64,000 bases of DNA from Lachnospiraceae bacterium (lineage in GTDB: Bacteria; Bacillota; Clostridia; Lachnospirales; Lachnospiraceae), in contig JAKVNF010000002.1 in assembly GCA_022483465.1 (NCBI GenBank), positions 1-64,000 on the forward strand. The letters are read 5' to 3'. A program made the translations under genes and the position numbers. The notes below the pieces were generated by a model. That model did not search any database. It worked only from the letters and a program-made list of their open reading frames with translations, and was not told where the DNA came from. Below are positions 17,246 to 41,126 of this stretch, piece by piece (position 1 is the stretch's first letter; each line of letters begins with the position of its first letter).

Positions 17246-18572
17246 GGGAGTCAAGAAAAAGATTCGGGTAGCAGCCTACTGCCGAGTCTCGACGGAGCAG
17301 GAGGAACAGATCGGTTCCTTCGAAAATCAGGTCAATTATTACACAGAACTCATCAACAACAATCCCGACTGGGTGATGGCAGGAATCTTCTCCGATGAGG
17401 GAATTTCTGGCACCGGAACAAAGAAGAGAGCAGGCTTTCAGAAAATGATGCGGGCATGCCGCGAGGGAAAGGTCGATCGCGTGATTACGAAATCAATTTC
17501 CCGATTCGCACGTAACACCGCTGACTGCCTGCACTACTCCCGGGAGCTCAAGGACCTCGGTATTCCGATCTACTTCCAGAAGGAGAACATCGATACGATG
17601 GCGGCATCCGGAGAGCTCCTATTCACGATTCTCTCCTCCCTTGCGCAGGAGGAGAGCCGGAACATCTCGGAGAACACAACGTGGGGCATCCGATCAAAAT
17701 TCAAAAGAGGCCAGCCGATGATCAACACCGAGCGCTTCATGGGATACGATAAGGACGAGAACGGCAACCTTGTCATCAACCCGGAGCAGGGCGAGGTAGT
17801 GAAGCGTATCTACCGGGATTTTCTTGAGGGCTGGTCGCTCGAAGGCATCGCGCAGCAACTGAAAGCAGAGCAGGTACCGGGCGTCACCGGAAAGGCCAGA
17901 TGGAACGCGAAAACAATTCAGCGCATGTTGCAGAACGAGAAGTACAAGGGAGATCTTCTCATGCAGAAGACATACACGGTCGATTTCCTGACGAAGAAGA
18001 TGGTCGAGAATAAAGGCGAGAAAGACCAGTACTATGTGCAGGGAGACCATGAGGCACTGGTCACTCCGGAAGTCTGGGAAGCAACACAATATGAGCTGAA
18101 ACGCAGAGAGGGCTTCATGGAGAGTCATGGGATCTGCAAGATCATCAGTCAGGCGGGGAGCGGTTTCTCCGGGAGGGTCTATTGTGGACTTTGTGGCAGC
18201 AGCTATCATCGCCTCAATCCCAATGGGAACACTCCATATTGGAAGTGCCTGAATGCGGAGAAGGCTCAGGGAAAGATCTGTACGAATGGGAATGTGAAGG
18301 AGAAAGAACTGCGCAGAGCTTTCACGATCGCATGGAACAGCATCGTGGAGAATCGTGAGTCCTTCATGGACCACTGGAAGACCATGCAGAAATCGGAAAA
18401 TGCACTGGAGAGAATCCGGGGGAAACAGATGATTGAACTCACCGCCGAGGGTAGATTGGAATTTGAGATTCCGGAACTCACCCGGATGGTGCTTGAGGAA
18501 GTGCGGGTCCATAACTCTACCACCTTCACCATCACCTTCCTCGACGGTACAGTGAAGAACGTAAAGCTATGA
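17193..18572 (+). CDS. Large serine recombinase 2
   Basis: A 459-residue serine recombinase. Catalytic S33 lies in AAYCRVSTEQEEQ; TKSISRFARNTADCL carries the conserved arginines. The recombinase domain (FMGYDKDENGNLVINP...NEKYKGDLLMQKTYT) and one zinc ribbon (YCGLCGSSYHR...WKCLNAEKAQGKIC) follow, then a C-terminal coil. ATG 17193 follows AAGGAG, and it overlaps recombinase 1 by 53 bases, so the pair is co-translated. Paired recombinases in clostridial elements may act together, one supplying integration and the other excision; which does which is not visible. Confidence 0.9.
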   Translation: MAKNVTVIPASPIRKSAEGVKKKIRVAAYCRVSTEQEEQIGSFENQVNYYTELINNNPDWVMAGIFSDEGISGTGTKKRAGFQKMMRACREGKVDRVITKSISRFARNTADCLHYSRELKDLGIPIYFQKENIDTMAASGELLFTILSSLAQEESRNISENTTWGIRSKFKRGQPMINTERFMGYDKDENGNLVINPEQGEVVKRIYRDFLEGWSLEGIAQQLKAEQVPGVTGKARWNAKTIQRMLQNEKYKGDLLMQKTYTVDFLTKKMVENKGEKDQYYVQGDHEALVTPEVWEATQYELKRREGFMESHGICKIISQAGSGFSGRVYCGLCGSSYHRLNPNGNTPYWKCLNAEKAQGKICTNGNVKEKELRRAFTIAWNSIVENRESFMDHWKTMQKSENALERIRGKQMIELTAEGRLEFEIPELTRMVLEEVRVHNSTTFTITFLDGTVKNVKL

Positions 18573-25100: not shown

Positions 25101-27386
25101 CAGCTGACCGATCTTGCCGGGGAAGCCGCCGGACAGCAGTACCTGATGGACTCCACCGGAAAGAATATCGTGATCGAGCAGCGGCTCGACATCACCTTCT
25201 CCGGGAGCGAGAAAACCCCTGTCATCACCACCCTGGGAAGCAACAGCTCGGGGAGCAGTGTGACCCTTCGCAGTGCGGTCCGGGGAAGCAATTCCGGCGA
25301 GCACTACGTGATCACAGGTCTTACCAACACCCTGGTGACCACGATTACACAGGCGGGTACGATACAGGACATTCGGATTGAGAGCTCAGATATTGCGGAG
25401 AATGGACTTGCTGAAACAAACAACGGCACCATCACGGGCTGCATCCTGCAGAACGATGCGGTCTCAGGAAACGGCCTTGTGGGGACAAGTACCGGTACCA
25501 TACAGGGATCCCGAATCCAGAACAGCACGGTCTTATCCGGCGCAGGCTTTGCAGGAACGATTGCAGGCGGGTCTGTCACGGGGTGTGATGTGATCAATAC
25601 CCTGGTGAGCGGTTCCGGCTTTGCCCAGACCATCTCCGCCGGCACGGTCTCAGACTGCCAGATCTACGGCGATGCCAGCCTGTACAGCAGCTACACGAAG
25701 GCCTTCTCGGCATCGCAGCTCCGGTATACGCCCTATGGCGGGAGTACGACGGGCAGTGCTTATGCACTGGTCCGCATCGGATCCACCGCGGCGAGCCCGG
25801 ATCTGACCAATGCCTCCGACAACGTGGCCGGCTTTGCCGCAGAGGTACAGGGGTACCAAACGGCGATCCAAAACTGCTCTGTCACAGGAGAGGTTTACGG
25901 AAAGCCGAATGCCGCGGGCTTTGTGCTCACCGCATCAAACGGCGCAGGCATCCGCAATAGCTATGCCAACACGATTGTCAGCGCATACCGCAAAACAAGT
26001 ACGGACACCACGGTGGCCTCTGGCTTTGCGGGAAGCGTTGCAAGTGGGGCTTCCATCAGCTACTGCCATGCCCTGGGCGTGCTCTCCAGCACAAACGGCA
26101 GGGCTGCCGGATTTGCAGGATCCCTGGTTGGCTGGACACCGATCTCAAACAGTTACACCGCGGTCTGGCAGGCCCAGGTCGACCGTACAGCAGACTATTC
26201 GCTCTTTGCGGGCAGCCAGAGCTATGCAAGCAGCGGCAACTATGCAATGGGCACGCTGTTTGTGAACGGCCTGCAGAACAGCCAGACCGATGCCGGCAGC
26301 GGCGTCACGCTGACAGACCGGAGCGGTCTTGCCGACGTGAAGAACCGTCTTGGCGGACAGGTGTCGGACAATTGCACATTCAAGTACGGGACATACAACA
26401 CAGATGCCTCCGATACGACCTATCCCTTTGGCATCGCGTCGGGGATGAGCGCCTACGGCGACTGGCCGCCGGCCTCTGCATCCAGAGAGACCGTGCAGGT
26501 CACCCAGAGCCATGACAGCGTTGCAAAGTACGGTCTCTATGAGACCGAAGGGGAAACGACGTCTACGGGCGGTCCCTTTGCCATCGAGGCGGTTGTGTAC
26601 CGCTATGGTTCCAGTTACAGGTATGAGTACTACCTGACGCGAAACGGCCAGCGGATCTGCTCCTTTCACAACATCACACGGTCTGACAACTCCCGCAACA
26701 TGGTGGTGAACAACAACCTCGCCAGTGACGTTTTCAGTACCACCTGGACCAGTGACGTGCGCTACGTTTCCATCGAGGACTACCTGAATACCACGTCCGC
26801 GATGACGGGCAACTCGAAGAACGTCTATGAGCTCCACTACACGAGGGGGCAGAGTGCGAATGATCTTGACAGCATCGCGGGCTCGGATACCACCTGTATC
26901 ATCACGATGCGTGATGGCACGGTATACGTGACCAACACGGTGCAGCAGATCAGGGTCGGTCAGACTTCCGTATCCTGGAACTATACCGATGGTTATACAA
27001 GAAGATCGGTGTCGGCTGCGGCGGGCATCACCTTAAAGCGCTACAGCGTGGAGGTCGCAGACGGTACAAATGAGGATGGAACCACCGGTGTTCAGGCAAC
27101 CCTCCGGTTTGTGGACACCGAGTCGGCAGAAGATCTGCAGAACCTTTCCATCCGCTACGATTGGTATGAGCTCAATTCCAACGGAACCCTGAGCTCCACT
27201 CCCGTGCAGTCCACAATCGGAACTGCGGCCTCAGGGGACTTCCTTCCCTTTACGAGCATGACCGAGGGGACGGAGTACGTCTGCATCGCAACCAACATCA
27301 CGAACATGACGCAGAATGCCAACAAATACCAGAACAGCTGGTACGCAGAGAGCAAGAGCTTTGCCAAAGTCACTGCCTCTTACTGA
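19126..27386 (+). pseudogene. Giant pilin-like GLUG-repeat surface protein, 5' end missing
   Basis: From 19176 a single frame of 2736 codons runs to 27386. Just upstream the pilin helix is still readable: LVVAI in one frame (19126-19140), then after a missing base GILAAFGFVAVVQ and EMDDTAREIFVAAQNHL, a typical prepilin N-terminal helix and neck. The start codon and the leader before it are gone. The body is Ser/Thr/Gly-rich with GLUG motifs (GGLVGSLEG, GGLAGRLLD, GGLLGALTG, GGLIGYVSG) at about residues 610-900 and 1480-1660, and similar shorter repeats later. Two large homologous blocks start at about 370 and 1260 (ARHLLNLSTD-like openings). No LPXTG or C-terminal membrane segment. It would have been a pilus-borne adhesin; now probably not exported. 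Confidence 0.75.
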
Positions 27387-27604: not shown

Positions 27605-28828
27605 ATGCCAGTCAAGCAAACCTCTGCCGCAGATAAGGCGGTTCAAAGGAGCATCCACATCCTGTTGTTGACCATTCTGCTCTTTGCTGTCGCTCTGGTG
27701 CTGGTTGCGATTCTGTTCGGCAAGACGAGGACTTCTCTGAGCTACGAGATTCAGGATCAGGATCTGAGCACGGAGGTGATCCGAACAGACGGCAGCACCG
27801 AGTTCTTCAGCAATGGGGATTTTCCAGGACTTGAAAAGGGCGATCGGATGATTCTGAACATCTCGCCCCTGGGAGAGCGCGGCACGGTGGAAGACGCGAC
27901 ACTGGCCTTCTCCCTGTATCACTGCCGGGTGCAGATCTATGTGGGTGATGGTCTGACCTACACCCAGACCGAGCCCCCGCTGGCCGAGCAGATCGGCCAC
28001 CGCTACTACATGGTTCCCCTGCCGAAGGGGTATGAGAACAAGACCATCCGGATCGAGGCGGTGGACGAGGAGAACGAGAAGGTCAGCGCACCCGATTTCA
28101 TCCGGGTCGTGCCCGGCACGTCTGCCATCGCCACCTTCACCGATGGCAGGACCCCGACCGTCTTCCTGATGTCGACGGGGCTCACCTTTTCCCTCTTCAT
28201 CTCCCTGCTTTCCGGGGTCCGCTGGGCAACAGAGCTTGCCGAGCGAGGAAAGAGCGGGCGGCGGAACAAGTGCAGCCCCAAAAAGGAAGAGGGAAAACAG
28301 GGATACGGCCTGTTTTTCATGGCTCTTCTCACCAACTCCATCATTCTCTGGTATTCTGGATATGCGGGCATTCTGACGCCCTTCGTCGCCAACAACACCG
28401 TCCTTGCCAACATTGAATACTGTGCCCTGTTCTTCATTCCGATCCCGCTCACCGGGTTCATGGAGGGAGAGGCAGCAAACCGGCGCCAGAAGATCGGCTG
28501 CCGGGTGCTCTTTGTGCTGTACCTGGCATTTTTCATCGCGGCCACCTGCTTCAACTTCCTGGTGCCGGACATCAACTACGTGAACTTTGTCAGCGTGCTG
28601 CGCCTGGTGCTTTTGTTTACCGTGGTCATGTTTGCCCTGTTCCTCGCAGGACAGGTTCGGAACGAGAACACCGTGGAGATCCGCTTTGCCATGCACGGAT
28701 ATCTCGTTGCGGCGGTGCTGGCAGCGGCAGATATGGTCCGATTTGAGCTTTCCTCCCAGATCGGATACAAGTATCATTTTCTGCGCTGCCCCCTGATGCC
28801 CGCAACCATCCTGGTCCTGTCCGTGACA
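27605..28828 (+). pseudogene. 7TM sensor half of a diguanylate cyclase, split by mobile elements
   Basis: These 408 codons encode an N-terminal membrane helix (HILLLTILLFAVALVLVAIL), an extracellular beta-rich region (about 45-180), then six or seven hydrophobic helices (from TVFLMSTGLTFSLFISLL to the end), the 7TMR-DISM layout. The frame ends at a TAA made by the inserted element. The missing GGDEF half resumes at 38543, where codons ATC CTG TTC TAC continue the last helix; joined, the protein is about 590 residues. In its intact form it would sense an extracellular signal and make cyclic di-GMP. As it stands it has no catalytic domain. Confidence 0.8.
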
Positions 28829-28834
28829 TAAAAT

Positions 28835-28882
28835 GCGGGCGGCGGGTTCAAGCCCCGGGGCTTGCCCCGGTAAGCCGCCCGC
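28835..28882 (+). other. Left-end hairpin of the TnpB-like element
   Basis: GCGGGCGGC (28835-28843) and GCCGCCCGC (28874-28882) are perfect complements enclosing an inner palindrome AAGCCCCGGGGCTT. It probably serves as the left recognition structure for the single-strand transposase. Confidence 0.6.
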
Positions 28883-28903
28883 AAAATGAAGAAATTTTGA
28901 AAA

Positions 28904-30107
28904 GGCGTTAGTAAAGAAACGGGTTGATAAGTAACGATCCCAAAAGTTTTTCCGGATTTGTGCATTTGAATGTACAACGTCCTTTTAGGACTTGACCTAT
29001 AATAGTCGTGTCAGGAGGACACGACTATGGGTAACATCGAATGCATACTGGCTGCAGTAAACAACCTCTCCGATTCGGATCTTAAGATTCTCGTTAACAA
29101 GATCATGGACCGTCTGAACCATGAGAAGGCGTTTGCTTCTTCGGTGAAGATCGTTCCCCGGATGGAATGTCCGGTCTGCCATACCAGTTCACATGTTGTT
29201 AGGAACGGTCACAAGCATGGCAAGCAGGCATTTCTGTGCCGGGCATGCGAAAAGTCATTTGTTACAACAAGTAACACACTTCTGTCTGGCTCACATTGCA
29301 GCAGTGATATCTGGAAGGCCGTCCTTGCTGACTCGCTTATGGGCGTATCCCTTGATGACACAAGAGATGGACTTGATCTTCAGCATATCCGGATCAGCCA
29401 TACCAGTCTCTTCTTCATGAGACATAAGATCATGCTGGCGCTTGAGGATCTTCAGGAGATCAGTCCTGCAATGGTCGAGGAAGTTGTCGAGGCTGATGAA
29501 ACCTATGTACCAGAATCGGAGAAAGGGACAAAATTCGGGCCCGACGCCAGGAGAAAGCCCCGTAAGCGCGGCACTCCGGCATCCAAGCGAGGCCTTTCTG
29601 ACGAGCAGATCTGCATCTGCACTGCAGTTCAGCGCAAAAGCGGCGATCCGGTTGTAAAGTCAGAGAACGGTGCAAGACCTTCCACAGAGGATGTCGTCGA
29701 CATCTACACAGGTCATGTTAAGAAGGGGGACCCTCTTCCTTACGGACGGAATTGAACGTATATCCGAAGCTGGGCAAGGTACTGGGACTCAGCGTTATGA
29801 ATGTGAAGAAGGAGACAGGCAGCTTCTTCAACCTGAACACGGTTAACAATTGCACAGCTTCATCAAGAACCGCTACTACGACTACCGCGGTGTGGCAACC
29901 AAGTACCTGAACCGCTACAACATGGTATTCCGTGCAGCATACCGGATGAGGATGTCGGTGGATGAACTTGCAGAGAAGCTCTTCCTGGTGCGTGATCCGA
30001 AGAGAGTGCATCACTATGATGATGTCAAGGAACTGAATTTGCTTGCTGTATAATTATGTTCCTACAAATTTTTACATTGCTTATCAACCCGGATCTTTAC
30101 TAACGCC
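28904..30107 (+). mobile_element. IS1595-family insertion sequence (about 1.2 kb)
   Basis: The terminal inverted repeats are about 30 bp: both ends start GGCGTTAGTAAAGA followed by two variable bases and CGGGTTGATAAG. An 8-bp duplication, TTTTGAAA (one base of ambiguity with TTTGAAAA), flanks it. It sits in the 5' non-coding part of the TnpB-like element. Its ends are nearly the same as those of the four 308-bp MITEs, so this family supplied the enzyme that moved them. Its own transposase is frameshifted. Confidence 0.85.
29027..30053 (+). pseudogene. IS1595-family transposase, multiple frameshifts
   Basis: The first 240 codons are intact: a zinc ribbon (CPVCHTSS...FLCRACEKSF, about residues 46-75), and the start of the ISXO2-like DDE domain with the first aspartate in EVVEADETYV. 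An extra G in the run near 29730 derails the frame before the expected TLFLTDG motif. Further single-base shifts near 29770 and 29850 are needed to reach VLGLSVMNVKKETGSFFNLN and then LHSFIKNRYYDYRGVATKYLN, the conserved C-terminus, which ends at 30053. The remaining product should be inactive unless the sequence has errors here. Confidence 0.8.
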
Positions 30108-30196
30108 TTTTGAAAAAGTGTTCTTAACTTCAAAATAATCCGACATATTTGTAATGCAACAAGCAAGACTGCTCCTTTCTATCAGGAGGACGGCAT

Positions 30197-30559
30197 ATGG
30201 GATTCAAGCGTTTCAGACCGGAAAATGAGAATCGTACTGCTTATCGGCTTTTATGCCCTCGCCATGTTATCGCATTGGAGGCAGACATAGATGAAGACAA
30301 CAAACGGCATACTTTCTCCAAAAACGATACCCTGCGCATAGCTGATAATGAAGCGATAGCCATCATGCACAAACGGATTGATCAGCTCAAGCGTACACGG
30401 AAATATCGTGCTCTTCAGAAAGACTACCTATGGAAGAAGCAGCATCTTGCCAAGCTGGATCCCGAATCCGATGCGTATCGGCAGCTGGATGAGGCTAGAA
30501 AGCATACTGCCAATCAGATGGCCGCAATGCAGCATCAATTTCTGATCTCAAAATCTGAG
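30197..30559 (+). pseudogene. TnpB-like nuclease, N-terminal part (split by IS110)
   Basis: These 121 codons start at ATG 30197 after TCAGGAGGAC and give a basic, helical N-terminal segment (RIADNEAIAIMHKRIDQLKR, YRALQKDYLWKKQHLAKLD). At GAG 30557-30559 the IS110 element begins. Skipping from 30559 to 36915 continues without a frame change (LISKSE then VHKLMQEAAKG), giving a 576-residue protein. The helical region would contact the guide RNA and target DNA in TnpB proteins. The local frame runs past the junction to a stop in the IS110 end. Confidence 0.7.
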
Positions 30560-30675
30560 CTTCCTGTAATCTTCAAAGTAGATCGGGTTTGACATAAAAA
30601 GATACCTCACGGTACATTGATACTACTTATCAACCCGGGCGGTTATAAGAATCTAATGTACAAGAGGTATCTACC

Positions 30676-31153
30676 ATGAATCGTAACGCACACACATCAA
30701 AAAAGCAAACATCTAAGACTGCAGCAAGCGAAGGAAGACGCGGAAAGGAAGAGCAAGCGGAATTCATCAAGAAATGCGAAGAGATCGTCAAGGGACTACA
30801 GGCACACTCCTGGAAAGATCTTGAAGTCGGACATAAATTCAGGCATAACGAGAAGCTCGATCTGATCACAGCAGGTTCATTGATCGTCGGCTGCGATATC
30901 GGGAGCGTTAAACACTTTATCCGTGCTATTGATGCTCAGGGTAGAGCTCTCACAAACAAGCCATTTCCCTTCGAAAACGACGAGGAAGGCTTTAAGGCTG
31001 CCCATGACTGGATGGTCAAAGTCGCGGCGCAGAACGATAAGACGCAGATTGTTCTGGCGCTGGAACCTACAGGCCATTACTGGTTTTGCTTTGCTGCCTG
31101 GTGCACTTCGCATGGCATAACCGTCGTACAGGTCAACCCTTATGCGGTAAAAG
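30676..31153 (+). pseudogene. IS110-family DEDD transposase, N-terminal part
   Basis: 159 codons with a basic N-terminus, then the RuvC-like DEDD domain: VGCDIGSVKHF (D) and LALEPTGHYW (E), ending VVQVNPYAVK. IS66 inserted at GGTAAAAG. The other part resumes after 35347 in the same frame (A-T-K-E-I-Q-D-N-S-Q-L-K), giving 487 residues. In intact form it would cut and exchange strands at a site chosen by its bridge RNA. Confidence 0.85.
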
Positions 31154-31194
31154 GTAAGCATAACAACCAGCGTACGCTGACAAAACCTGCATGA

Positions 31195-31593
31195 GGCGTT
31201 ACCATTAAGGGGGGGAGGGTTCCAGTTGTAACCGCAAATACTTCAGAGATTCGCGGTTGACAGCGGAGGTGAATCTCTTTGCAGGTGTATTGCCTTCGGC
31301 CGACGCATCCCCTGGGAATGAACTGCGCAGGTTCGGATCTGGCCTGCAGGTACGCCGGTTGTGATGGGCGTCTCCGTGTACCTGGATAGGTTGGGCATCC
31401 GGGTCCCAGTCTCCTGTCACCCTGAAGCGATGGATCCAGACACAAGAAAGTCCGGCATGGCGATTCCCCGGGTGGGAACAATACCATGCCGGACGTTCAA
31501 TTCTGCAGTTTCACTTATGCAACTGCAAGTGGCCGATGCCTGCCTGTTCGGCAGACGTCGGCTACTCGGGTTATTCTGTTTGTCAGGAGGTTA
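31195..31593 (-). other. Gene-free end of IS66 with a long hairpin
   Basis: No credible gene is seen here. An 11-bp perfect stem (31450-31460 with 31484-31494) with an inner paired segment lies near the middle, and AACCGC...GCGGTT at about 31230-31258 forms a weaker stem. On the minus strand it follows tnpC, so it may end that transcript; its length is unusual for IS66. Confidence 0.45.
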
Positions 31594-33825
31594 TCATGCT
31601 GCCGGGTATGGGCCGACCACCTTTCCATCTCGCATCCACCGGCCATTTACCAGGATGGGTTCTGTCTCAGATTGAAAACTGATACCTTTCCCGGCCTGTG
31701 TGGCTTCTCGCTGCTTCGCTTCGTATGCCCTGTATTCTTCGGACCAGCACATCATCTTTGGAAGATATTCATCTGGGTTGTCTCCCCGCCTCTGATGCTT
31801 GGGTATCTCGATGAGGAGATACCGGAAGTAGTACTCCGGATCGGCATCATTCAATTCCGCTGTTGTTGCGATGGAGTTCGCAATCATGCGGTCGGTGGCA
31901 CCTTCATCTGAATAAGAAAAGAGACTGCTGTTTCTTTGCAAAGCAATCCTACGGATGTTTCTTTCACAGTAAGTGTTGTCCGCAGGTACGTTAGAATCGT
32001 AGAGGAAGCTGTCGATGTGACCGCCTTTCTTGCAGTCCTCAAAGTAGTTCATCGCCCTGCGCATCGTCGCGGTCATCGTTACTCGTTTTGATTGATCAGA
32101 GGAAGTACCATGCAGCGAGGCCTGATAGGCCTCCTCATACTCACAGATGTACTGCCAGGCCAGATCCAGGTGCGGCTTTACGTTTTTGATTCTTCCGGCA
32201 ACCCGCTCCTCTCCGGACAGGCGCTTGAGCTTCGTATCCTCGCTCTCGGCAAGGCTGATCTCGCGCAGGATTTTCCATTCCCAGGTCTGTGCCAGCTGTT
32301 TTCTGCCTTCCTCCGTTTTCATGAGGTCTTTTGAGGCCATCTTTACAATAAACCAGGCAAGAAAGAACGGCCTTCTCAGATGCGCAAGGCAGAATGAGAC
32401 TACGATCTTTCCTTCAGACTTGCGCTCCAGTTCCGGATATGCAGCATACTTGTCGTTCTTGCATACGACAGATGCATTTCCTGTCACTGCCGTAGGATCG
32501 GGCTCCGTTTCCTGTTCCAGCGGAGTTGTCTGGCCTGCGGTATCCGAACGATCCGCGTCATTATCCGGAAGAAAGTCTGCAAACAGACCATCCAGAAATG
32601 ACTCAGCCCTGGAGGGATTGAAGAAATATGCAGCAGCCTTGGGACCTTCCCGCAGCTCACTTGTAATCAGCAGCCAGATATAGGACTTTTCTCCCGGCTT
32701 CTCAGCATCATAGATGGATCTCCAGGTGGTTTCATCCATCTGAATGTACTTGCCCGCTATGATGAAGCTGACGAGATAATCGAAGACGGGAAGCAGATAT
32801 CTTGCGGCACAGGTATTGCACCAGTAAACCGTTTTCTGCGTTTTCATGGGATAGCCCATGTGACAGATCAGAGCAGCGATGCGTTTGTACGGGATGCTCA
32901 TACTGGTCAGCATGTAGTACATGAAGGCGACGATCTCCGGGGTTGCCCGGGATCCCGGCATGATATATCCCTCGCTGTAGGGCCGGTATAGCGTACGATT
33001 CACCTCATGACTGTCAGGATCGGATTTTTCTTCGTTGCTGACATCCTCTGAGTATGCGATGATTGGTTTCATGATCGTCAGCACGACGACATGAGCCTCC
33101 TCTATACTGAGTTTTTCTCTTGCTTCGAATCCCAGCTTAGATAAAGACTTTGCTTTTTCGATCATTTCCGGAGTCAGATCATCCACATCATAGCTGATTC
33201 TGTGCGGGAGATTCTGCGTATCACGCTCCCAGATGCCTGGCTTGCGCTTCTGTTTTTCCTTTGATTCATCGGGTATCGGTTTTCTCGGGGGACGGCTGCT
33301 CCGTCTGGGTTTCCTGTCTTTTTCGCCAGCTCCGCCTTTCCCGGACGGATTCTCATCCTGAGTTTTTCCGTCACTGTCTTTCCCATTTTCGTCTGCATTG
33401 GCTGGCTCTGCAGGTTCTTCTGTCCCTGTCGTGTCTTTGGCCTGCTCTCCATCAGCGTCAGACTCTTCGGTGAGCGGATCTGTCTCCACATCCTCGCTGC
33501 CGCCTTGTGGAATCCCGGTTTCGAGTTCTTTCCCAGAGAGCTGCTCGTCCTTTTCCCCAAAGGCTCTCCTACGTCCGAGTTTGTTGTTCTCGTCCTTATT
33601 CTGCTCCTTCTGTTTGAGTTCCTCATTTTCCTTTTGCAGCGCTTTATAATCTTCAGCTGCTTTTTCAGCTGCCTTTATCAGCGCTGCAATGCGGTTCGTC
33701 TTGACGATGTCATCCACGATAACCTCACTAAAGATGTTCGAGATGTCGCTCGGACTGAAAGCGCCACACTGGTACAGGAGGTTGTACTTATGAAGTCTCT
33801 GGACAGGGATCTCGGTTTCCATCAC
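31594..33825 (-). CDS. IS66-family transposase TnpC
   Basis: A 743-residue DDE transposase. Residues 1-75 hold a leucine-rich coil; about 80-190 is a long acidic and basic low-complexity linker (QGGSEDVETDPLTEESDADG) that explains the extra length over usual 500-residue members. The catalytic core has IQMDETTWRS (D), VVCKNDKYAAYPE (D) and DNTYCERNIRR (E), with the Zn-like CNTC just before. A C-terminal IS66 tail follows. Its start overlaps the stop of the coiled-coil gene by 4 bases (ATGA). No frameshift. Confidence 0.9.
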   Translation of the reverse strand: MMETEIPVQRLHKYNLLYQCGAFSPSDISNIFSEVIVDDIVKTNRIAALIKAAEKAAEDYKALQKENEELKQKEQNKDENNKLGRRRAFGEKDEQLSGKELETGIPQGGSEDVETDPLTEESDADGEQAKDTTGTEEPAEPANADENGKDSDGKTQDENPSGKGGAGEKDRKPRRSSRPPRKPIPDESKEKQKRKPGIWERDTQNLPHRISYDVDDLTPEMIEKAKSLSKLGFEAREKLSIEEAHVVVLTIMKPIIAYSEDVSNEEKSDPDSHEVNRTLYRPYSEGYIMPGSRATPEIVAFMYYMLTSMSIPYKRIAALICHMGYPMKTQKTVYWCNTCAARYLLPVFDYLVSFIIAGKYIQMDETTWRSIYDAEKPGEKSYIWLLITSELREGPKAAAYFFNPSRAESFLDGLFADFLPDNDADRSDTAGQTTPLEQETEPDPTAVTGNASVVCKNDKYAAYPELERKSEGKIVVSFCLAHLRRPFFLAWFIVKMASKDLMKTEEGRKQLAQTWEWKILREISLAESEDTKLKRLSGEERVAGRIKNVKPHLDLAWQYICEYEEAYQASLHGTSSDQSKRVTMTATMRRAMNYFEDCKKGGHIDSFLYDSNVPADNTYCERNIRRIALQRNSSLFSYSDEGATDRMIANSIATTAELNDADPEYYFRYLLIEIPKHQRRGDNPDEYLPKMMCWSEEYRAYEAKQREATQAGKGISFQSETEPILVNGRWMRDGKVVGPYPAA

Positions 33826-34199
33826 CGGGCCTCTTTGTCTACGGAAGCAAGGCTTGCGCTGGCCTTCTGAACGGCATCCTGATAGGCGCGGAGAGCCTTC
33901 CTCAGCTGTGTATTCTCATTCCGCAGAGATGCATTTGCCTCCTCCAGCTCTGTTATTCTGGAAATCAAAGTTTTCGTCGAACCTTCAGCCCGAACAGAGT
34001 TTGCCTGCTCTGCTGGTGCGTCGGAGGCCGATGCCTGCTTTCGAACGTACTTCCTGGTGGGCACAACCTCCCCTGTAACGGGATCAAGCTTCCCGATCAG
34101 CTTCCGGTCTGTCTTGTGCTGTTTAGCCTCCTTGTCCCAATAGCTGTGTGAAGAATAAACGTATACCGTATCCCCCTGTCTCAGATGAATGGTACCCAT
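33822..34199 (-). CDS. IS66-associated coiled-coil accessory protein
   Basis: A 125-residue protein. Residues 1-50 (VYVYSSHSYWDKEAKQHKTD, then RKLIGKLDPVTGE) match the N-terminal beta segment often found at the start of IS1634-type transposases; residues 80-125 are a coiled coil (RITELEEANASLRNENTQLR). It is coupled to tnpC by overlap. It is not one of the standard three IS66 proteins, so this element has a variant gene set. Its role is unknown; a DNA-binding or assembly helper is plausible. Confidence 0.65.
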   Translation of the reverse strand: MGTIHLRQGDTVYVYSSHSYWDKEAKQHKTDRKLIGKLDPVTGEVVPTRKYVRKQASASDAPAEQANSVRAEGSTKTLISRITELEEANASLRNENTQLRKALRAYQDAVQKASASLASVDKEAR

Positions 34200-34344
34200 G
34201 TCAGACCTCCTGAGAGCTGCTTATCAGTTCTCAGGAGTATAGTAACATATCTATACCCTCTTGTCAACCGAAAATAAGGGTATAGATATCTGAATATTTA
34301 TACTCCCCACTGAAGTAGCCTGAAAGTTCAAAAACCGCGTGTTT

Positions 34345-34734
34345 TCAGGATCTCTGGGATTCTGCGGCCACCTGATCAGGCATGTCGATGTGCGGGTATA
34401 CTTCGCGGATGGTACCGTCAAGTGCGATTCCGCTCATGAGCTGACGGTACTGCTCCGGAGAAAGAGATCTGGCTTCGTCCGCATTCCTGGGATACTGGAA
34501 TGAGTTTCCCGGCGCAAGGCGAAGCGTATAGAGCACAGTGCCGATTCCCTCGAAGCAGATCCCCTTGATCGTTCTGGCAGATCTGCCACGAAAAAGATAG
34601 AGAACTCCACGGTCCGTTGGATCCAGGTGATAGTTCAGCATGACATAAGCGGAGAGTCCATCAACGCCGCGGCGCATATCCACCCTCTTCGTGCAGAGAA
34701 TGATCTTCCTGAAGCCGATGCCGTCAACAAACAT
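34345..34734 (-). CDS. IS66 TnpB (Orf2) accessory protein
   Basis: A 129-residue protein of the IS66 Orf2 family, with the typical CTKRVDMRRGVDGLSAYV near residue 13 and the GVLYLFRGRSARTIKGI core near 45. It is required with TnpA and TnpC for transposition of IS66 elements. ATG 34734 begins MFVDGIGF and overlaps tnpA by 11 bases. The C-terminus carries an added 40-residue tail. Confidence 0.85.
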   Translation of the reverse strand: MFVDGIGFRKIILCTKRVDMRRGVDGLSAYVMLNYHLDPTDRGVLYLFRGRSARTIKGICFEGIGTVLYTLRLAPGNSFQYPRNADEARSLSPEQYRQLMSGIALDGTIREVYPHIDMPDQVAAESQRS

Positions 34735-35242
34735 GAAAAGCCTCCTTAAGCATGGAGAGGGTCTCGCGCCGGACAGAAGAGTAGAGATAGAGCCGACAGG
34801 ACCGTGTCTCCAGGATAACTTCCGGAGACACGGCAGGCCCTCCCGGCCTGCCTGGAACAGATCCGGCATTTCCTTCTTCCGGTGTACCGGTGATCCGCGG
34901 AAGATCAGAGTGGTTCGACCGGCTGCGGGAACCCGAGTCATCAGCAGTACCCGGTTCCGAGCCTATTGTATTGACATCAGGGCGTACATGTCCGTTTACG
35001 ATATCGGTGATGTCTACGAAGTTCTCTGTCTCTGGCACTGAAACAGAGGATGCCTTCCTGTTACTGGCGTCCGTCTCCCTGATCACGTTTTTCCAGTAGT
35101 AGAAGAGCGAGACGTTGATCTCATGCTCCCTGCACCATTGTGCAATCGACATCAGCTTCGTTTCTCTGTTCTCGTACGCATTGATGATCGGCCTCCAATA
35201 GCGAAGCTTCTCCTCACGAACCATCTGCTGTCTCTTGTCCAT
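34724..35242 (-). CDS. IS66 TnpA (Orf1) accessory protein
   Basis: A 172-residue protein with an N-terminal helix-turn-helix (KLMSIAQWCREHEINVSLFYYWKN, split here around residues 29-52) and a variable linker, ending with the IS66 Orf1 strand SCRLYLYSSVRRETL. ATG 35242 (MDKRQQMV) is chosen for the GAGGAGG 8 bases upstream. It is the first gene of the IS66 operon and overlaps tnpB. Confidence 0.8.
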   Translation of the reverse strand: MDKRQQMVREEKLRYWRPIINAYENRETKLMSIAQWCREHEINVSLFYYWKNVIRETDASNRKASSVSVPETENFVDITDIVNGHVRPDVNTIGSEPGTADDSGSRSRSNHSDLPRITGTPEEGNAGSVPGRPGGPAVSPEVILETRSCRLYLYSSVRRETLSMLKEAFHVC

Positions 35243-35347
35243 AAAAAAGCCTCCTCTGTAGAACACAGCTAGTAGTTTCCTAGCCTCATTCTACAGAAGA
35301 GGTTGATCCGGGTCATGGTACGTCCGTTGTTACGCTTACGGTAAAAG

Positions 35348-36333
35348 CGACGAAGGAGATCCAGGACAACAGCCAGCTCAAGAGCGACCGCAAAGACCCC
35401 GGAGTAATCGCGGAGCTGGCCAAAAATGGCAATTATTCGATACCGTACATCGCTGAAGGCACCTATGCTTCACTCCGTGAGCTGGAGCTTTTCCGTGAAC
35501 GTGTCTCGGAGGATAGGATCCGCGACATTAACAGGCTCTGCCAGGAAATGGACAAATACTTCCCGGAATACAGGCGCATCTACAAAGAAGTTGATAAAAC
35601 GTTCAGCCTAGTAGTCCTGGCAAAAGCCCCTCTGCCCGAAGACATAGTCAGAATCGGAGAAGACGGGGTCAGAGCTCTCTGGCATAGCGAGAAGCTGCGT
35701 GGTGGTGGATACAGTAAGGCTGCAGAGCTCCTTCAGAAGGCCAAACATAGCGTTGGCCTGAGGGAAGGGCAGGCTCAGGCCAGGATGTCCATCCAGTACC
35801 TTGCAGGATCAATCCGGGATAAAGACGCACGCATTGATGAAATCGATGCCGAGATCACGAAGCTGGCAAAATCAATCCAATACGTTGAAAAGCTCACGGC
35901 AATTCCTGGACTTGGAGAGCGTATTATTTCCGGAATCCTGTCTGAGATCGGTGATCTAATCCGCTTTGACAGTGTGAAAGAGATCCAGAAGTATAGCGGC
36001 CTGGGACTGGTCTCTGAAAGCTCCGGTAAGCACAATGGTGAGACACATATCAGCCATAGAGGGCGCAAGCGGCTCAGATATTGGCTGTACATGGGTGCCA
36101 GGAGCGTAGTGGTACATTCCAGTGAGTTTGCCAAGCTGCATACGTACTACACAACCAGAGAGGAGAATCCGCTCAAGAAGATGCAATCGTTGATGGCAAT
36201 TGCGTGCAAACTCCTGAGAGTCATATACGTGATTCTAACGAAGGGGGTGGACTATGATCCACAAAAGCTGCTAGGGGACATCGTGAGACCCGAGAACGCG
36301 AAAAACAAGACGAAAGGAGCCGCTGTAGCGTGA
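35348..36333 (+). pseudogene. IS110-family transposase, C-terminal part
   Basis: Continuation of the gene at 30676. It has the long coil (LELFRERVSEDRIRDINRLC), the helix-hairpin-helix TAIPGLGERIISGILSEIGD and the C-terminal transposase-20 domain with YSGLGLVSESSGKHNGE and the catalytic serine region, then HRGRKRLRYWLYMGA. An internal ATG at 35548 keeps this region open, but without the DEDD half it is inactive. Confidence 0.85.
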
Positions 36334-36914
36334 ACATATCAGTATATAGCGGAACAGATCGAATGAGAGAGTATAGGGCTGATCCGCTGTAAAGGCTGTG
36401 CAGTACAAACATGGTTCCAGTACCCTGCCAGATCCCGGATGAGGATCTGAGACCTGGCAGGGCTCTGGAACCGACAGAGTTCTAAACCAGTAGGGGAAGA
36501 CAGGCGGCAGTATTGCGCCAGCTGATCAAACAGCTCTGTTGTCCGATCCGAACCGGTCTGGTAGCAGTATCAAACAAATAAGAGCTGTAGCCGGCAGGAA
36601 GTTTTTACCATGGGGCATAGACCCCGCATCTGAGCTTTGCCGGCACCCGGTGTATGACAGGTGGGACGAAGGAAGTTGTGGACGTCAGAGTATCTCACTG
36701 ATGATCCCTATAGACACGGGAGGTTCACCTCATAGATCATTCAGGGTATAAGAAGGCCTTTATAAAAGTAAAGGTGTTTTATTTCCTGTACGAACTTTTG
36801 GACAGAATGCTCCAATCCTTCTTTGGAATACACCCTTTGGCTCTTATTCGTTCAGTACCGTGAGGTTGAAAAACCTTGATTTAATAGGGAAAAATCCCTT
36901 GACACAATAGGGAG
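36334..36914 (+). ncRNA. Candidate IS110/IS1111 bridge RNA region
   Basis: A 581-bp gene-free segment between the transposase stop and the element end. It has a strong stem-loop at 36413-36472 (GGTTCCAG and CCCTGCCAG arms facing CTGGCAGGG and CTGGAACC) with an inner GATC...GATC stem, and further paired segments to about 36750. The IS1111 subgroup encodes its bridge RNA on this side. Exact RNA ends and the target- and donor-binding loops cannot be fixed by eye. Confidence 0.5.
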
Positions 36915-38282
36915 GTTCATAAATTAATGCAGGAAGCGGCAAAAGGCCACAAGATTCCTTCTGTTCTTGCTGCTACCAGTGCGGATAATATCTGGCAGGG
37001 CATTCAAAAAGTCCTGTACTCCAATGGGAAGAATATCCACTGCCACAAGCGCGGCGATCTGCCTGTAATGCGGGCGAAAGAAATCAATCGCATTATCGTT
37101 CTCAAAGTCGATAAGGAAACAGAGCGTCTTGTGGTTCATATAGATGGACTTGACCCGATGCCATTGCTGGTTCCGAAAGATGATCAATATCTGATCGACG
37201 AATACAACGCACTGCTGGATTATATGGAACACCCAGAGGTGGAAGATACGGCAGTACGCACATACAGCGAAACCAACAATGTGGTGCCAGTATTCCGCCC
37301 CTGCTATTGCTCTATTCGGTGCAAGAAAATCCGTGGGAAGCTCCGCTGTTTTGTGCTGATCACCATTGCCGCTCCCCCTATGCCAAAGAAGGATAAGTAT
37401 GGCAGACCGAGAGTCGCCCGTGGAAACGGACGGGTTGGCTGCGATATTGGAACGCAGTCAGCAGCTGTTGTGTCTCAAAACTCTGTAGAACTCTTCAATC
37501 TGGGAGAACGCAATCAGGGTGCATATCAGAAAAACGATAAGCGGAAAAAGTTCCTGCTGCGTAAGATGGATGCCAGCCGCAGAGCTATGAATCCGGAACG
37601 GTTCAACAAAGACGGTACTTATAAGAACGGCACACATGGCAAGTGGAAAGTGTCGAAATCCAATCGCAAGAGGCTGTATAAATATCGGGAACTCTGCAGA
37701 AAGGAAGCCGCAACCAGACTGTATGCCAACCAGGAAGCTGCCAATCATCTGCTTTCGCTAGGCAATGTCCTGATCACGGAGCCTTCGAATACAGCGGCAT
37801 TAGCACGCAAGTCGAAGAAAAAGGCACAGCGATCTGACAAAGCATCGCAGATCCCGCAAAAAGACGGAACAACGAAAACGGTCCACAAGTTCAAGAAAAA
37901 GAAACGGTTTGGTGCCTCCGTATTAAGACGAAGTCCTGCTGGTTTTCAGGCAGAGCTTCGTAAGAAATTTGGGCCCGGCTACCATGAAGTACCACGTATG
38001 ACTTACCGAGCGAGTCAGTACGATTTTATGCTTGACGCATACATCAAAAAGAAGCTCGACGAACGATGGCATTCTCTTCCGGATGGACGGCAAGTCCAGC
38101 GGGACATTATGTCAGCTTTCCTGTTATCGTGTGCAGACGACGAATTCCAATCCATTGACCGAAACCGGTGTCTGCAAGCATTTGATCACTTTTGGCAGAT
38201 GCACCAGCAATGTATCAACACCATCATCCAGAATCACTTAACGATTTGTAATTCCGGCATTAAGTTGGATAAAGCAGTGTAA
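36915..38282 (+). pseudogene. TnpB-like RNA-guided nuclease, C-terminal part with RuvC motifs
   Basis: 455 codons that complete the protein begun at 30197. RuvC-I: VGCDIGTQSAAVV (D about 297 of the joined protein); RuvC-II: VLITEPSNTAALARK (E about 409); RuvC-III: QVQRDIMSAFLLS (D about 517). Between II and III there is a basic region (KKKKRFGASVLRRSP, YRASQYDF) but no CxxC pairs, so the usual TnpB zinc finger is missing. Such proteins cut DNA guided by an RNA from the element's right end. An internal ATG at 36927 could give a 451-residue product lacking the N-terminal domain. Confidence 0.7.
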
Positions 38283-38542
38283 TCTTTCTGTTTTTACCAT
38301 AGCAGGGCGTTTGACTTAGCGCCCGGTTCTTGAAACAGAGGACGAATTGAACCCAGTAAAGTACCGTCAGCTCTGAGCTGACCGGTCAGAGGTTTAGATG
38401 GCTGGCTCCGGAGTAAATACCTGTCCCAAAGCGGCTTGTCTGTGAGTACGACACGAAATACCTCCGTGTGGAAGACCAACATCTTCCCCAACCAGAATCC
38501 CTCGCGTGCGAACCCCCGTGGCTCGCCACGGGGTAAGTCAGG
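38283..38542 (+). ncRNA. Candidate omega RNA (reRNA) scaffold at the TnpB element right end
   Basis: 260 bases with no gene but many short stems: GGGCG...CGCCC near 38305, GGTTC...GAACC, GTCAGCT...AGCTGAC near 38368, GGAAGA...TCTTCC near 38470, and the terminal hairpin 38514-38533. It abuts the element end, so the guide would be the flanking sequence beginning ATCCTGTTCTAC. This is the standard omega RNA arrangement. Confidence 0.55.
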
Positions 38543-39091
38543 ATCCTGTTCTACTACGGCATGCAGTACTCCCGGGAGTCCTTTGAGCGGATCGAGCGGG
38601 AGAGCTTCAAGCGCCTTGCCTTCACAGACCAGCTGACTGGCGCCCCGAACCGCAGCGCCTGCAGCCGGATGTTTCAGTCGATGCGCGACGAGAAGATCAC
38701 GGATTACTGCCTCGTCTTTACCGACGTAAACTTTTTGAAGCACACCAACGACACCTACGGACACGAGCAGGGCGATGCCCTGATCCGGAGCGCGGCAGAG
38801 GCCCTGGGAAAGCACTTTTGCGGCAAGGACTTCTATGGCAGATGGGGCGGAGATGAGTTTATCGCCGTCCACTTCGGCACCCTGGAGGAGACGAATGCGT
38901 GCCTTGTCAGGGTGGAAGAGGAGACGAAGCGCAAAAATGAGGCCCGGGATTACCCGTTTTCGATCTCCCTGTCCTTCGGCGTTGCAGTCAGCACGGGAGA
39001 GCATCCCCTGACCCCGGAGGAGGCAACGCTTGCCGCGGACCGGGTCATGTACGAGAATAAGAAGCAGGCCCATGCCGATCGGAGGAACTGA
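38543..39091 (+). pseudogene. GGDEF half of the split diguanylate cyclase
   Basis: 183 codons continuing the 7TM protein from 28828. They begin with the end of a helix (ILFYYGMQYSRESFERIERE), a signalling coil and a full GGDEF domain: LAFTDQLTGAPNR, then FTDVNFLKHTNDTYGHEQGD and the active-site loop YGRWGGDEFIAV. The inhibitory RxxD site is not evident. In joined form the enzyme would make cyclic di-GMP from two GTP. An internal ATG at 38561 could give a soluble GGDEF fragment, but no good ribosome site is seen. Confidence 0.85.
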
Positions 39092-39140
39092 AAAAGAGAG
39101 AAAACGCTTTCTTTCGCCAAAGAGGAGAGGACATTCGGAT

Positions 39141-41126
39141 ATGTTCAACTCGTTTTACCCCGCGGGGAGATACAATCTCAACTTTGATGTCTGCGCGATG
39201 TTTCTGGCGGGCATTCTCTTTATCTTTTACATCACCCGTCCCCGGGTGTTCCAGGAGAAGCGGACGCGGTGCTTTTTACTTCTCCTGTTCGTCCTGTTTG
39301 TCTCCTCACTGTGCGAGTTCTGCGCTTCGGTCATGTTTAACAGCGGGAGCTACAGCGGCTCTTCTGCGCTGGACGCGGTGCTGACCATCTCCCACACCGC
39401 GCAGGTGCTCCTTCCCTATCTATTGGCGGTCTACCTCCTGGAGGTCCTTGGCTTTTCCCGCCGCATCACAAGGAGAAGGGTTTTGCTCCTCGCCCTGCCG
39501 GAACTTTTCCTTCTGGTCCAGATCATGGCGACCGAGGTCCAGAGCGCGGCGCGAGGCGCAGAGCCCCACGTGACCCAGACCGGGGTGATCCTCTGCATCA
39601 TCTTCTTCAGCGCCGTCATCTGGTTCTACATCGGGATCTGCCTCGTGGTCCTCGTCCGCTCCCGCAGGGCGCTCCTTCGCAGGGAGTACATCTCCATCCT
39701 CATCGTTCTCGTCGCCTTCTGGTGCGCCATGGTGCCGCAGCTGTTTGACCCCTATCTGAAGGCAACCGAATTCCTTGTCTCCCTGTGCATGCTGGGCATC
39801 TTCATCACCCTGGAGAATGACGCCGATCTCTACGACGGCGCCACGGGCCTTCGCACCCGGACTGCCATCTGGCGGGAGTCCCAGGAGATCTTCGACCAGG
39901 AGATCTCCTCGTTTGTGGTCAGCATCAAGCTGGGCAACACGGGCTACCTGTCCATGATGCTGGGCATCCCGGCGATGAAGGAGCTGGACCGGGAGGTGGG
40001 GATCTTCCTGCAGCAGTACGCGGACGATGCGGTGCATGTCTACCGCCTCTCCGACCAGTCCTACGCCATGGTGCTCTTCCAGGGCGACCGGGACCGGGCC
40101 AAAAAGATCGCGGAGGAGATCCTGTCCCGCTTCCAGGCCCAGTGGTGCCTGTTCGGCACCAACGTCCTGGTGCCCGCCCAGGTCTGGATCAGCCGCATCC
40201 CGGATCAGATCCCGGATGAGAAGCACCTGAACGTCTTTCTGGACACCCGGTATGACCCGGCGGTCCCCGCCAATGCCCTGCACCAGTTCGACATGTTGAA
40301 GAGCGAGGCGCGCCGCTCCGAGGTGGAGCTTGCCCTGCAGCGGGCCCTGGATGCGGGAACCCTGACGGTGTACTACCAGCCGATCTACGATACGAAAGAG
40401 GGGAGAATCCACTCCTGCGAGGCGCTCCTTCGCATGCACGACGAGAAGCTCGGCAATGTCTCCCCGGAGGAGTTCATCAAGGTGGCCGAGCAGACGGGCC
40501 TCATTGCCAAGATCGGGGAGTCGGTCTTCGAGAAGGTCTGCGCCTTTCTCGAGAGAGAGCACCCGGAGCAGTACGGCCTCGACTTCGTGGAGGTGAACCT
40601 CTCCACGATCCAGTGCATGGATCCCACCCTGCCGATGCGCTTTCAGCGGATCATGCAGTCCCACGGGGTGAAACCGCAGCAGATCAACCTGGAAATCACC
40701 GAGTCCGCGGTGATCCACGACGAGAAGACCATGCAGGCGCTCCTCTCCACCCTCCAGAAGATCGGCTTTTCCTTTGCCCTGGACGACTTCGGGACCGGAA
40801 ACGCCAACTACACCTATGTGATGAAGTACCCCTTCCGCCTGATCAAGATCGACAAGAGCTTTCTGTGGGGCGCCGAAAAGGACGATGCGGCCCGGGCAAT
40901 CCTCGAGAACATGCTGGAGCTGGTCAGGGGCCTTGGCCGGGAGGCGGTGGTCGAGGGCGTCGAGACGAAGACGCAGCGGGATATGCTGTGCCGGGAACAG
41001 GTCCGCTACCTGCAGGGCTATTACTATTCAAAGCCCATCCCCGAGCCGGATTTCCTGAACTATGTCAAAAACTTTAGCCAGCGCGGCAGTTCGCAGGAGA
41101 CGGATGGCAGTTCCCGGGAATCCTGA
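39141..41126 (+). CDS. Membrane EAL-domain cyclic di-GMP phosphodiesterase with degenerate GGDEF
   Basis: A 661-residue protein. Residues 1-230 have about seven membrane helices (NLNFDVCAMFLAGILFIFYI onward). About 235-395 is a GGDEF-like domain without the GGDEF motif, so not a cyclase. About 400-640 is an EAL domain with SCEALLRMHD, VEVNLSTIQ, INLEITES, LDDFGTGNANY and VVEGVET, all residues needed for phosphodiesterase activity. ATG 39141 follows AGAGGAGAGG. It is the next gene after the broken cyclase, so the two would have formed an opposing make/break pair; now only the degrading partner is intact. Confidence 0.88.
   Translation: MFNSFYPAGRYNLNFDVCAMFLAGILFIFYITRPRVFQEKRTRCFLLLLFVLFVSSLCEFCASVMFNSGSYSGSSALDAVLTISHTAQVLLPYLLAVYLLEVLGFSRRITRRRVLLLALPELFLLVQIMATEVQSAARGAEPHVTQTGVILCIIFFSAVIWFYIGICLVVLVRSRRALLRREYISILIVLVAFWCAMVPQLFDPYLKATEFLVSLCMLGIFITLENDADLYDGATGLRTRTAIWRESQEIFDQEISSFVVSIKLGNTGYLSMMLGIPAMKELDREVGIFLQQYADDAVHVYRLSDQSYAMVLFQGDRDRAKKIAEEILSRFQAQWCLFGTNVLVPAQVWISRIPDQIPDEKHLNVFLDTRYDPAVPANALHQFDMLKSEARRSEVELALQRALDAGTLTVYYQPIYDTKEGRIHSCEALLRMHDEKLGNVSPEEFIKVAEQTGLIAKIGESVFEKVCAFLEREHPEQYGLDFVEVNLSTIQCMDPTLPMRFQRIMQSHGVKPQQINLEITESAVIHDEKTMQALLSTLQKIGFSFALDDFGTGNANYTYVMKYPFRLIKIDKSFLWGAEKDDAARAILENMLELVRGLGREAVVEGVETKTQRDMLCREQVRYLQGYYYSKPIPEPDFLNYVKNFSQRGSSQETDGSSRES

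What the first reader, a model, noticed from the sequence alone, without database searches (positions are those of the whole stretch)
27605..39091. Four-level nest of mobile elements inside a diguanylate cyclase gene
The 7TM part (27605-28828) and GGDEF part (38543-39091) of one gene are 9.7 kb apart. Between them is a TnpB-like element. Inside that are an IS1595 element (8-bp duplication TTTTGAAA) and an IS110 element, and inside the IS110 is an IS66 element (8-bp duplication GGTAAAAG). Removing each layer rejoins the gene beneath it in frame: K|A-T-K-E for IS110, S-K-S-E|V-H-K-L for TnpB, S-V-T|I-L-F-Y for the cyclase. This gives a clear relative time order and shows that cyclic di-GMP synthesis here was lost while the next-door EAL phosphodiesterase survived.
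Basis: seen in the sequence. Interest (0 to 1): 0.85.

Follow-up and report, generated by a model that had tools for sequence, protein, structure and literature searches.

The report
Four nested insertion sequences in cyclase
A bacterial signalling gene has been split by a mobile element that itself carries three other mobile elements; the nest is real, but comparison with sister copies in the same genome shows that one inner layer was already on board before the outer element landed.

Summary
The nest is real at the stated coordinates. A sensor-GGDEF cyclase gene is split by a tnpA-less IS200/IS605-type element with a TnpB-like gene (28828-38541), which holds an IS1595 (28904-30107) and an IS1111-like IS110 element (30560-36914); the IS110 holds an IS66 (31154-35339). 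Uninterrupted copies exist for the IS66 site, the IS110 site and the IS1595 site. No near-identical empty cyclase site was found, but the rejoined 590-aa frame aligns without a gap at the join to nine homologues. IS1595 thus entered first and rode into the cyclase. Divergence from the paralogues compared fits: IS1595 3.4-3.8%, TnpB 2.1%, IS110 1.0%, IS66 0%. c-di-GMP synthesis is not lost: 36 other GGDEF matches exceed the cut-off. Nested insertion sequences are known. Least ordinary is the outer TnpB clade, little seen by Pfam, with a covarying 3' RNA without Rfam match.

The parts
27605..28827 (+). 5' part of the interrupted cyclase gene (membrane sensor half); its frame is closed by a TAA at 28829-28831 supplied by the element
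   Evidence: ORF 27605-28831; joined with 38542-39091 it gives a 590-aa frame aligned to 9 uninterrupted homologues
28828..38541 (+). outer element: IS200/IS605-type element with a TnpB-like gene, no tnpA; left flank GTGAC, right end ...GTCAG
   Evidence: sister copies in the same genome; right end conserved in 67 of 75 sequences
28835..28882 (+). left-end hairpin of the outer element
   Evidence: sequence; shared by the C2:805 kb copy, L021 and L057
28895..28903 (+). left copy of the IS1595 target duplication TTTTGAAAA
28904..30107 (+). IS1595-family element, ends GGCGTTAG...CTAACGCC, transposase frameshifted (pieces 29027-29755 and 29850-30053)
   Evidence: NCBIfam NF033547 2.9e-16; ends and copies; frameshifts
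30108..30116 (+). right copy of the IS1595 target duplication
30197..30559 (+). tnpB-like gene, 5' part
   Evidence: uninterrupted in L016 and L017
30560..36914 (+). IS110-family element (2161 bp without IS66 and one duplication); transposase pieces 30676-31153 and 35348-36333; subterminal inverted repeats 30604-30615 and 36855-36866; long 3' non-coding region
   Evidence: PF01548 4.4e-14 and PF02371 2e-19; ends from three other copies; repeats
31146..31153 (+). left copy of the IS66 target duplication GGTAAAAG
31154..35339 (-). IS66-family element, 4186 bp: transposase 31594-33825, extra ORF 33822-34199, accessory TnpB 34345-34941, accessory TnpA 34724-35266
   Evidence: PF03050 9.5e-36; NF033517, NF033819, NF047593; 13 full copies in the genome, this one included
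35340..35347 (+). right copy of the IS66 target duplication
36915..38282 (+). tnpB-like gene, 3' part with the RuvC-like motifs
38283..38541 (+). putative guide-RNA (omega RNA / reRNA) scaffold ending in a hairpin and GTCAG; true 5' start not determined
   Evidence: covariation over 48 sequences; 3-4 differences to the scaffolds of three sister copies
38542..39091 (+). 3' part of the interrupted cyclase gene (GGDEF half); its first bases (about 16-20, recalled from known TnpBs) would be the guide of the omega RNA
   Evidence: PF00990 5.1e-27
39030..41126 (+). neighbouring membrane-EAL gene, uninterrupted (true start probably downstream of 39030)
   Evidence: PF00563 2.7e-66, profile positions 3-236 of 236

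Best explanation
A nest of four mobile elements in one cyclase gene, built in this order. (1) An IS1595 element inserted between the left end and the tnpB gene of a tnpA-less IS200/IS605-type element somewhere else. (2) Its transposase acquired a frameshift. (3) The IS1595-laden TnpB element spread to several sites, one being the cyclase gene at a GTGAC site, without duplicating the target; a Y1 transposase acting in trans is inferred, not shown. (4) An IS1111-like IS110 element inserted into tnpB at an AG core. (5) An IS66 element inserted into the IS110 transposase gene, duplicating GGTAAAAG. Steps 1, 4 and 5 are shown by uninterrupted sequences and step 3 by sister copies plus homologues of the cyclase; step 2 before step 3 is inferred from a shared frameshift. 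That step 4 followed step 3 is the simplest reading, not proven. The effect is loss of this one sensor-linked diguanylate cyclase, not of c-di-GMP synthesis.
For: IS66 in IS110: copy L180, 99.03% identical over 2161 columns, reads straight through the site. IS110 in tnpB: the C1, C2:805 kb and C4 copies are uninterrupted there; of the three other IS110 copies at 88-99% identity, three share its right end and two were shown to share its left end. IS1595 in the TnpB element: empty site in L057; right junction shared by the window, C1 and C4 copies, left junction by the C2:805 kb remnant, both by L021. A one-base insertion in the IS1595 transposase is shared by the window, the C4 copy, L021 and the truncated copy L024; it is absent in C1, L023, L027, L028 and the three 72% relatives whose alignment was printed. 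Cyclase: no gap at the join in an alignment to 9 of 9 uninterrupted homologues, ORFs of 587-623 aa. Divergence from the paralogues compared falls in the order of the proposed events.
Against: No near-identical empty cyclase site exists in the 62 genus genomes searched; the homologues are about 26-29% identical. In tnpB the C1 and C4 copies are closest to each other (98.5%), whereas the IS1595 frameshift groups window, C4 and L021; C1's IS1595 is 99.5% identical to the separate copy L023 and lacks the TnpB left end, so recombination or conversion has touched at least one copy. The inserted base is T in window, L021 and L024 but C in the C4 copy. No matching element ends were found at the 8 of 38 Y1 loci examined.
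Confidence: 0.92

Rival explanations
1. One reading: a clean TnpB element entered the cyclase, and IS1595 entered that copy afterwards.
For: The target duplication and the empty site show that IS1595 entered a TnpB element.
Against: The same insertion, at the same base, is in the C1, C4, C2:805 kb and L021 copies, with a frameshift shared by three of the four copies that cover it, window included. Independent insertion at one base in all of them, or conversion of all of them, would be needed.
Confidence: 0.05
2. The IS1595 unit and tnpB are one working element: a DDE transposase replaces the Y1 transposase as the mover of this tnpB lineage.
For: All five close in-genome copies (window, C1, C2:805 kb, C4:361 kb, L021) carry IS1595 or its remnant in the place where many relatives carry tnpA. 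The sixth, distant tnpB fragment at C4:582 kb was not examined for this.
Against: IS1595 has its own ends and target duplication inside the element; it also occurs alone with its own duplications; the element's right end is shared with relatives that carry Y1 tnpA; its transposase is frameshifted in three of the four copies that cover the spot, and all but 195 bases are deleted in the fifth; an IS1595-free left end exists.
Confidence: 0.03
3. The two cyclase halves are separate genes, or the region is an assembly join error.
For: No near-identical intact allele was found; five IS66 copies, this one included, differ by at most one base, a classical assembly trap.
Against: The homologues are single ORFs aligned across the join without a gap there; exact duplications flank IS66 and IS1595, which a wrong join would not be expected to give; the joins across IS66, IS110 and the outer element restore reading frames.
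Confidence: 0.03

Closest known systems
IS200/IS605-family elements with TnpB (ISDra2, ISFba1; the tnpA-less kind is called IS1341-type, recalled)
   Same: TnpB/Cas12f-like fold, Y1 tnpA beside the gene in 51 of 72 relatives with room upstream, subterminal hairpins, no target duplication at the cyclase join, fixed right end followed by free flank, conserved 3' RNA
   Different: this copy lacks tnpA and carries three other elements; its intact sister has no Cys zinc ribbon and matches no Pfam or NCBIfam model at the thresholds used; the region matches no Rfam model
IS1111-type members of the IS110 family
   Same: DEDD plus Transposase_20 domains, long non-coding region downstream of the gene, subterminal inverted repeats (definition from passages of PMC11187229)
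   Different: interrupted by IS66, so not functional as it stands
MGE-in-MGE insertions of Haloquadratum walsbyi (PMC3119063)
   Same: elements inserted in one another, IS605-type elements among the targets; 192 events tabulated (passage)
   Different: the passage seen deals largely with MITE-like elements; here three insertion sequences are stacked inside a fourth, and one passenger is older than the host insertion

Membership tests
TnpB (IS200/IS605 RNA-guided nuclease) | TnpB/Cas12f fold | tested here: met
   AlphaFold model of the intact C1 sister copy, pLDDT 89.7, pTM 0.68; Foldseek 8iaz ISFba1 TnpB 1.3e-10, 8hr5 Cas12f1 7.1e-11; TM-scores over the query only 0.44-0.46 for these two, rmsd 11-12 A
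TnpB (IS200/IS605 RNA-guided nuclease) | RuvC-like D, E, D residues | tested here: met
   D298, E410, D518 invariant in 37 sequences; their catalytic role is inferred from the alignment to 9j09 and 9jfs
TnpB (IS200/IS605 RNA-guided nuclease) | C-terminal Cys zinc ribbon (typical, not universal; recalled) | tested here: not met
   consensus RASQYDH...VQRD without Cys pairs; so filed as a TnpB-like variant
TnpB (IS200/IS605 RNA-guided nuclease) | match to curated family models | tested here: inconclusive
   intact copy: none in NCBIfam (E up to 0.01) and only an unrelated PcrB hit at 0.051 in Pfam; among the 37 members of A3, 16 match NF040570 guided_TnpB and 2 match PF01385
IS200/IS605 element | Y1 transposase partner | tested here: inconclusive
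   absent in the window copy; present upstream on the same strand in 51 of 72 relatives with at least 500 bases upstream, of 80 loci
IS200/IS605 element | fixed ends, no target duplication | tested here: met
   GTCAG right end in 67 of 75; left flank GTGAC in 3 and GTAAC in 1 of the 4 copies seen to keep the left end
IS200/IS605 element | RNA-guided cleavage by TnpB | not testable with these tools
   needs a bench assay
IS110 family, IS1111 type | DEDD transposase with Transposase_20, 3' non-coding region, subterminal inverted repeats | tested here: met
IS1595 family | IS1595 transposase, 8-bp duplication | tested here: met
   NF033547 2.9e-16, 60 bits against a cut-off of 75 for the broken first piece; 8 bp in 20 of 26 end pairs, 9 bp here
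IS66 family | tnpA, tnpB, DDE transposase, 8-bp duplication | tested here: met
   8-bp duplication in 4 of the 5 copies with exactly matching ends
Diguanylate cyclase | GGDEF domain linked to a sensor half | tested here: met
   PF00990 5.1e-27; linked only after joining the halves; enzymatic activity not tested

The most novel reading that the evidence does not exclude
Although its tnpB is dead, the copy in the cyclase still carries an omega RNA scaffold with only 3-4 changes and a guide that matches the cyclase directly beside the element's GTGAC site. Intact TnpB from the C1 and C2 copies could use it in trans to cut any intact cyclase allele. The broken cyclase allele would then be maintained, and could spread, as a TnpB-driven null allele, from a zinc-ribbon-less TnpB clade with its own omega RNA type.
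Probability: 0.2. Interest if true: 0.55.

Novelty: new member of a known kind. Interest (0 to 1): 0.36.

Why it matters
It is a clean worked example in which nesting order and time order differ: an inner element can be older than the insertion that holds it, and only sister copies reveal this. It also points to a widespread TnpB clade (236 candidate stretches confirmed) that Pfam hardly sees and whose 3' RNA found no Rfam match here, so such elements are easily missed in annotation.

Tried and rejected
Rfam scan of 28500-39200 at E up to 1: no match. First genome-contig scan with the sensor half: 33 pattern matches, no relative confirmed. Genus-wide search for a near-identical intact cyclase: 6 of 62 genomes match, own included, the others at 23-31% identity. 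PADLOC: no match for two TnpBs. Search for a Y1 transposase with matching ends: none at the 8 loci examined of 38. I first read L021 as an inverted IS1595; it is merely on the other strand. Paper searches for nested insertion sequences: searches gave mostly general hits, none; the one useful precedent is PMC3119063. I cannot say that this clade or its RNA is unpublished: searched only an open-access library and the hits were seen as listings.

Read depth: PMC3119063, PMC11187229, PMC9208149 and PMC4072520 as passages found by term (the PMC9208149 passage was only a reference-list entry on plants); PMC11870625 and PMC10278001 as search listing with start of abstract.

Rows left out: of the 11 non-own cyclase matches, nine loci went into (L009 is a second piece of the ORF in L008; L154 was not used). 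A1: the C2 sister copy was dropped. A3: 39 sequences were hand-picked (38 of the 80 loci plus the own C1 copy), three dropped for stop codons, L051 added. A2: 3 of the 4 own right ends and 45 of the 63 others; the C4 row is shifted by one base. One search counts 21 of the 33 pairs predicted; the 12 left out include two weaker helices. Capped first looks: 40 of 189 candidates scored, 40 of 48.
Full report
Observation. Pfam and NCBIfam name the IS110 (PF01548, PF02371), IS66 (PF03050, NF033517, with accessory genes NF033819 and NF047593) and IS1595 (NF033547) parts. The outer protein has no match in NCBIfam at E 0.01 and in Pfam only an unrelated hit at 0.051.

Layer 4, IS66. 31154-35339, ends GTAAGC...GCTTAC, duplication GGTAAAAG. 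The genome holds 13 full copies, this one included. Of the seven other copies compared, three are identical over 4186 bases and one differs by 1 base. Of the five copies with exactly matching ends, this one included, four have an 8-bp duplication. The IS110 copy at C2:546 kb (L180) reads GCGGTAAAAGCGACG straight through the site.

Layer 3, IS110. 30560-36914. Of three other copies at 88-99% identity, two were shown to share the left end and three the right end. Three sister tnpB genes are uninterrupted at this site. The long non-coding region lies downstream of the gene (116 bases before it, 581 after it, from the ORFs) and subterminal inverted repeats of 12 bp are present, the IS1111 pattern described in PMC11187229 (passages). 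Nearest copy: 21 differences in 2161.

Layer 2, IS1595. 28904-30107. The nucleotide search returned 95 matches, many of them short end fragments: a 94-97% identical group and a larger group at about 72%. 26 end pairs were found in the 30 fetched loci: duplication 8 bp in 20, 9 bp in 4 including this one and its sister L021, none in 2. The empty site is in L057, a truncated element in a congeneric genome.

The order. Sister TnpB copies at C1:637 kb and C4:361 kb carry IS1595 with the same right junction; the copy at C2:805 kb carries its left 195 bases with the same left junction and a deletion; L021 at C2:209 kb carries both junctions but no tnpB. A one-base insertion beside the codons for LTDG is shared by the window, the C4 copy, L021 and the truncated copy L024, and absent in C1, L023, L027, L028 and the three 72% relatives printed. 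So IS1595 entered, and most likely died, before this TnpB copy reached the cyclase. Against a simple tree: in tnpB the C1 and C4 copies are closest (98.5%), C1's IS1595 resembles the separate L023 (99.5%) and has lost the TnpB left end, and the inserted base is C in the C4 copy but T elsewhere. Conversion or recombination has thus occurred somewhere. Divergence agrees with the order: IS1595 3.4-3.8% from C1, L021 and L023 (5.2% from the C4 copy, whose replaced left end is counted in), TnpB 43 of 2073 from the C4 copy, IS110 21 of 2161, IS66 0 of 4186. Whether IS110 entered before or after the cyclase insertion is not shown.

Layer 1, the outer element. Intact sister genes give 590 open codons; from the first ATG of the C1 copy 576 residues were modelled. 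AlphaFold (pLDDT 89.7, pTM 0.68) and Foldseek place the protein with TnpB and Cas12f, at modest TM-scores (0.46 over the query for ISFba1 TnpB, 0.41 for ISDra2 TnpB 8h1j). A profile of 37 sequences reaches 9j09, named Cas12n, at 1.1e-6 and Cas12p at 0.0075. Of these 37, 16 match NCBIfam guided_TnpB and 2 match Pfam OrfB_IS605. Scanning the genome-contig collection (84,980 species) confirmed 236 stretches, 80 kept as loci. Of 72 of these with at least 500 bases upstream, 51 have a Y1 transposase gene there. GTCAG lies at the expected place in 67 of 75 right ends, 4 own and 63 of 71 others. The 3' RNA shows strong covariation in the 21 of 33 predicted pairs that were counted: 127 cells with both sides changed against a shuffled mean of 33.6; 96.9% paired against 84.1% shuffled and 24.7-42.5% when slid. 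The structure came from the same alignment, so the paired percentage is favoured, and related sequences can exceed shuffles without structure. A single-sequence fold of the window's RNA is unremarkable, z = -1.59. Rfam has no match in the region.

The cyclase. Joining CCGTGAC and GATCCTG gives 590 codons without a stop. The product aligns with 9 of 9 genus homologues tried, each one ORF of 587-623 aa, with no gap at the join. Searching 62 genus genomes found homologues in five besides the own genome, none close. The element's own TAA closes the sensor half. The GGDEF half keeps its motif. The genome holds 39 GGDEF matches, 37 over the cut-off with this one; how many are active cyclases was not examined, but global loss of synthesis does not follow.

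Mechanism and rivals. The best account is sequential transposition with an older passenger. That a Y1 transposase moved the outer element in trans is inferred: 38 Y1 matches exist, and the 8 fetched loci have no matching ends. The most novel reading is that the guide region, 3-4 changes from three sister copies, lets TnpB from other copies act on intact cyclase alleles. That TnpB favours element maintenance has been proposed in general (abstract starts of PMC10278001 and PMC11870625); nothing here shows it for this locus.

Known context. Elements within elements are documented; Haloquadratum walsbyi has 192 tabulated cases, with IS605-type elements among the targets (PMC3119063, passage). The finding is therefore a well-resolved member of a known kind. 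Two congeners match records titled uncultured Lachnospiraceae bacterium, isolates RUG057 and RUG227; that RUG means rumen is recalled.

Noticed in passing
L018 (G000:C4:358900-365500): The C4 sister copy of tnpB is split by a different insertion of about 1.5 kb flanked by a 4-base repeat TAAG, so this tnpB family has been hit at least twice in the genome.
   Followed up: partly
L169 (C1:1565231-1569416) and L165 (C4:605758-609943): Two IS66 copies differing from the window copy by 1 and 0 bases share the same right flank over the 12 bases seen, and one lacks a target duplication: a sign of a segmental duplication or of recombination between IS66 copies.
   Followed up: no
L016 / L022 (C1:634516-636929): Two IS1595 elements of different subgroups lie head to tail seven bases apart; the second has lost the TnpB left end and resembles the separate copy L023, as if by recombination between IS1595 copies.
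   Followed up: partly
G000:C1:1014615-1015906: IS1595 end sequences recur about every 316 bases, perhaps tandem miniature derivatives.
   Followed up: no
window 19176-27386: A 2736-aa ORF with many repeated glycine-rich motifs, next to the cyclase, has no Pfam match; it looks like a large surface protein.
   Followed up: no
window 15722-18572: Two overlapping ORFs for large serine recombinases (PF00239, PF07508) upstream of the large ORF: possibly the integration end of another mobile element.
   Followed up: no
whole genome G000: Heavy insertion-sequence load: 38 Y1 transposase matches, 13 full IS66 copies and dozens of IS1595 copies in a 4.3-Mb genome, where most congeners listed are 2-3 Mb.
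   Followed up: partly
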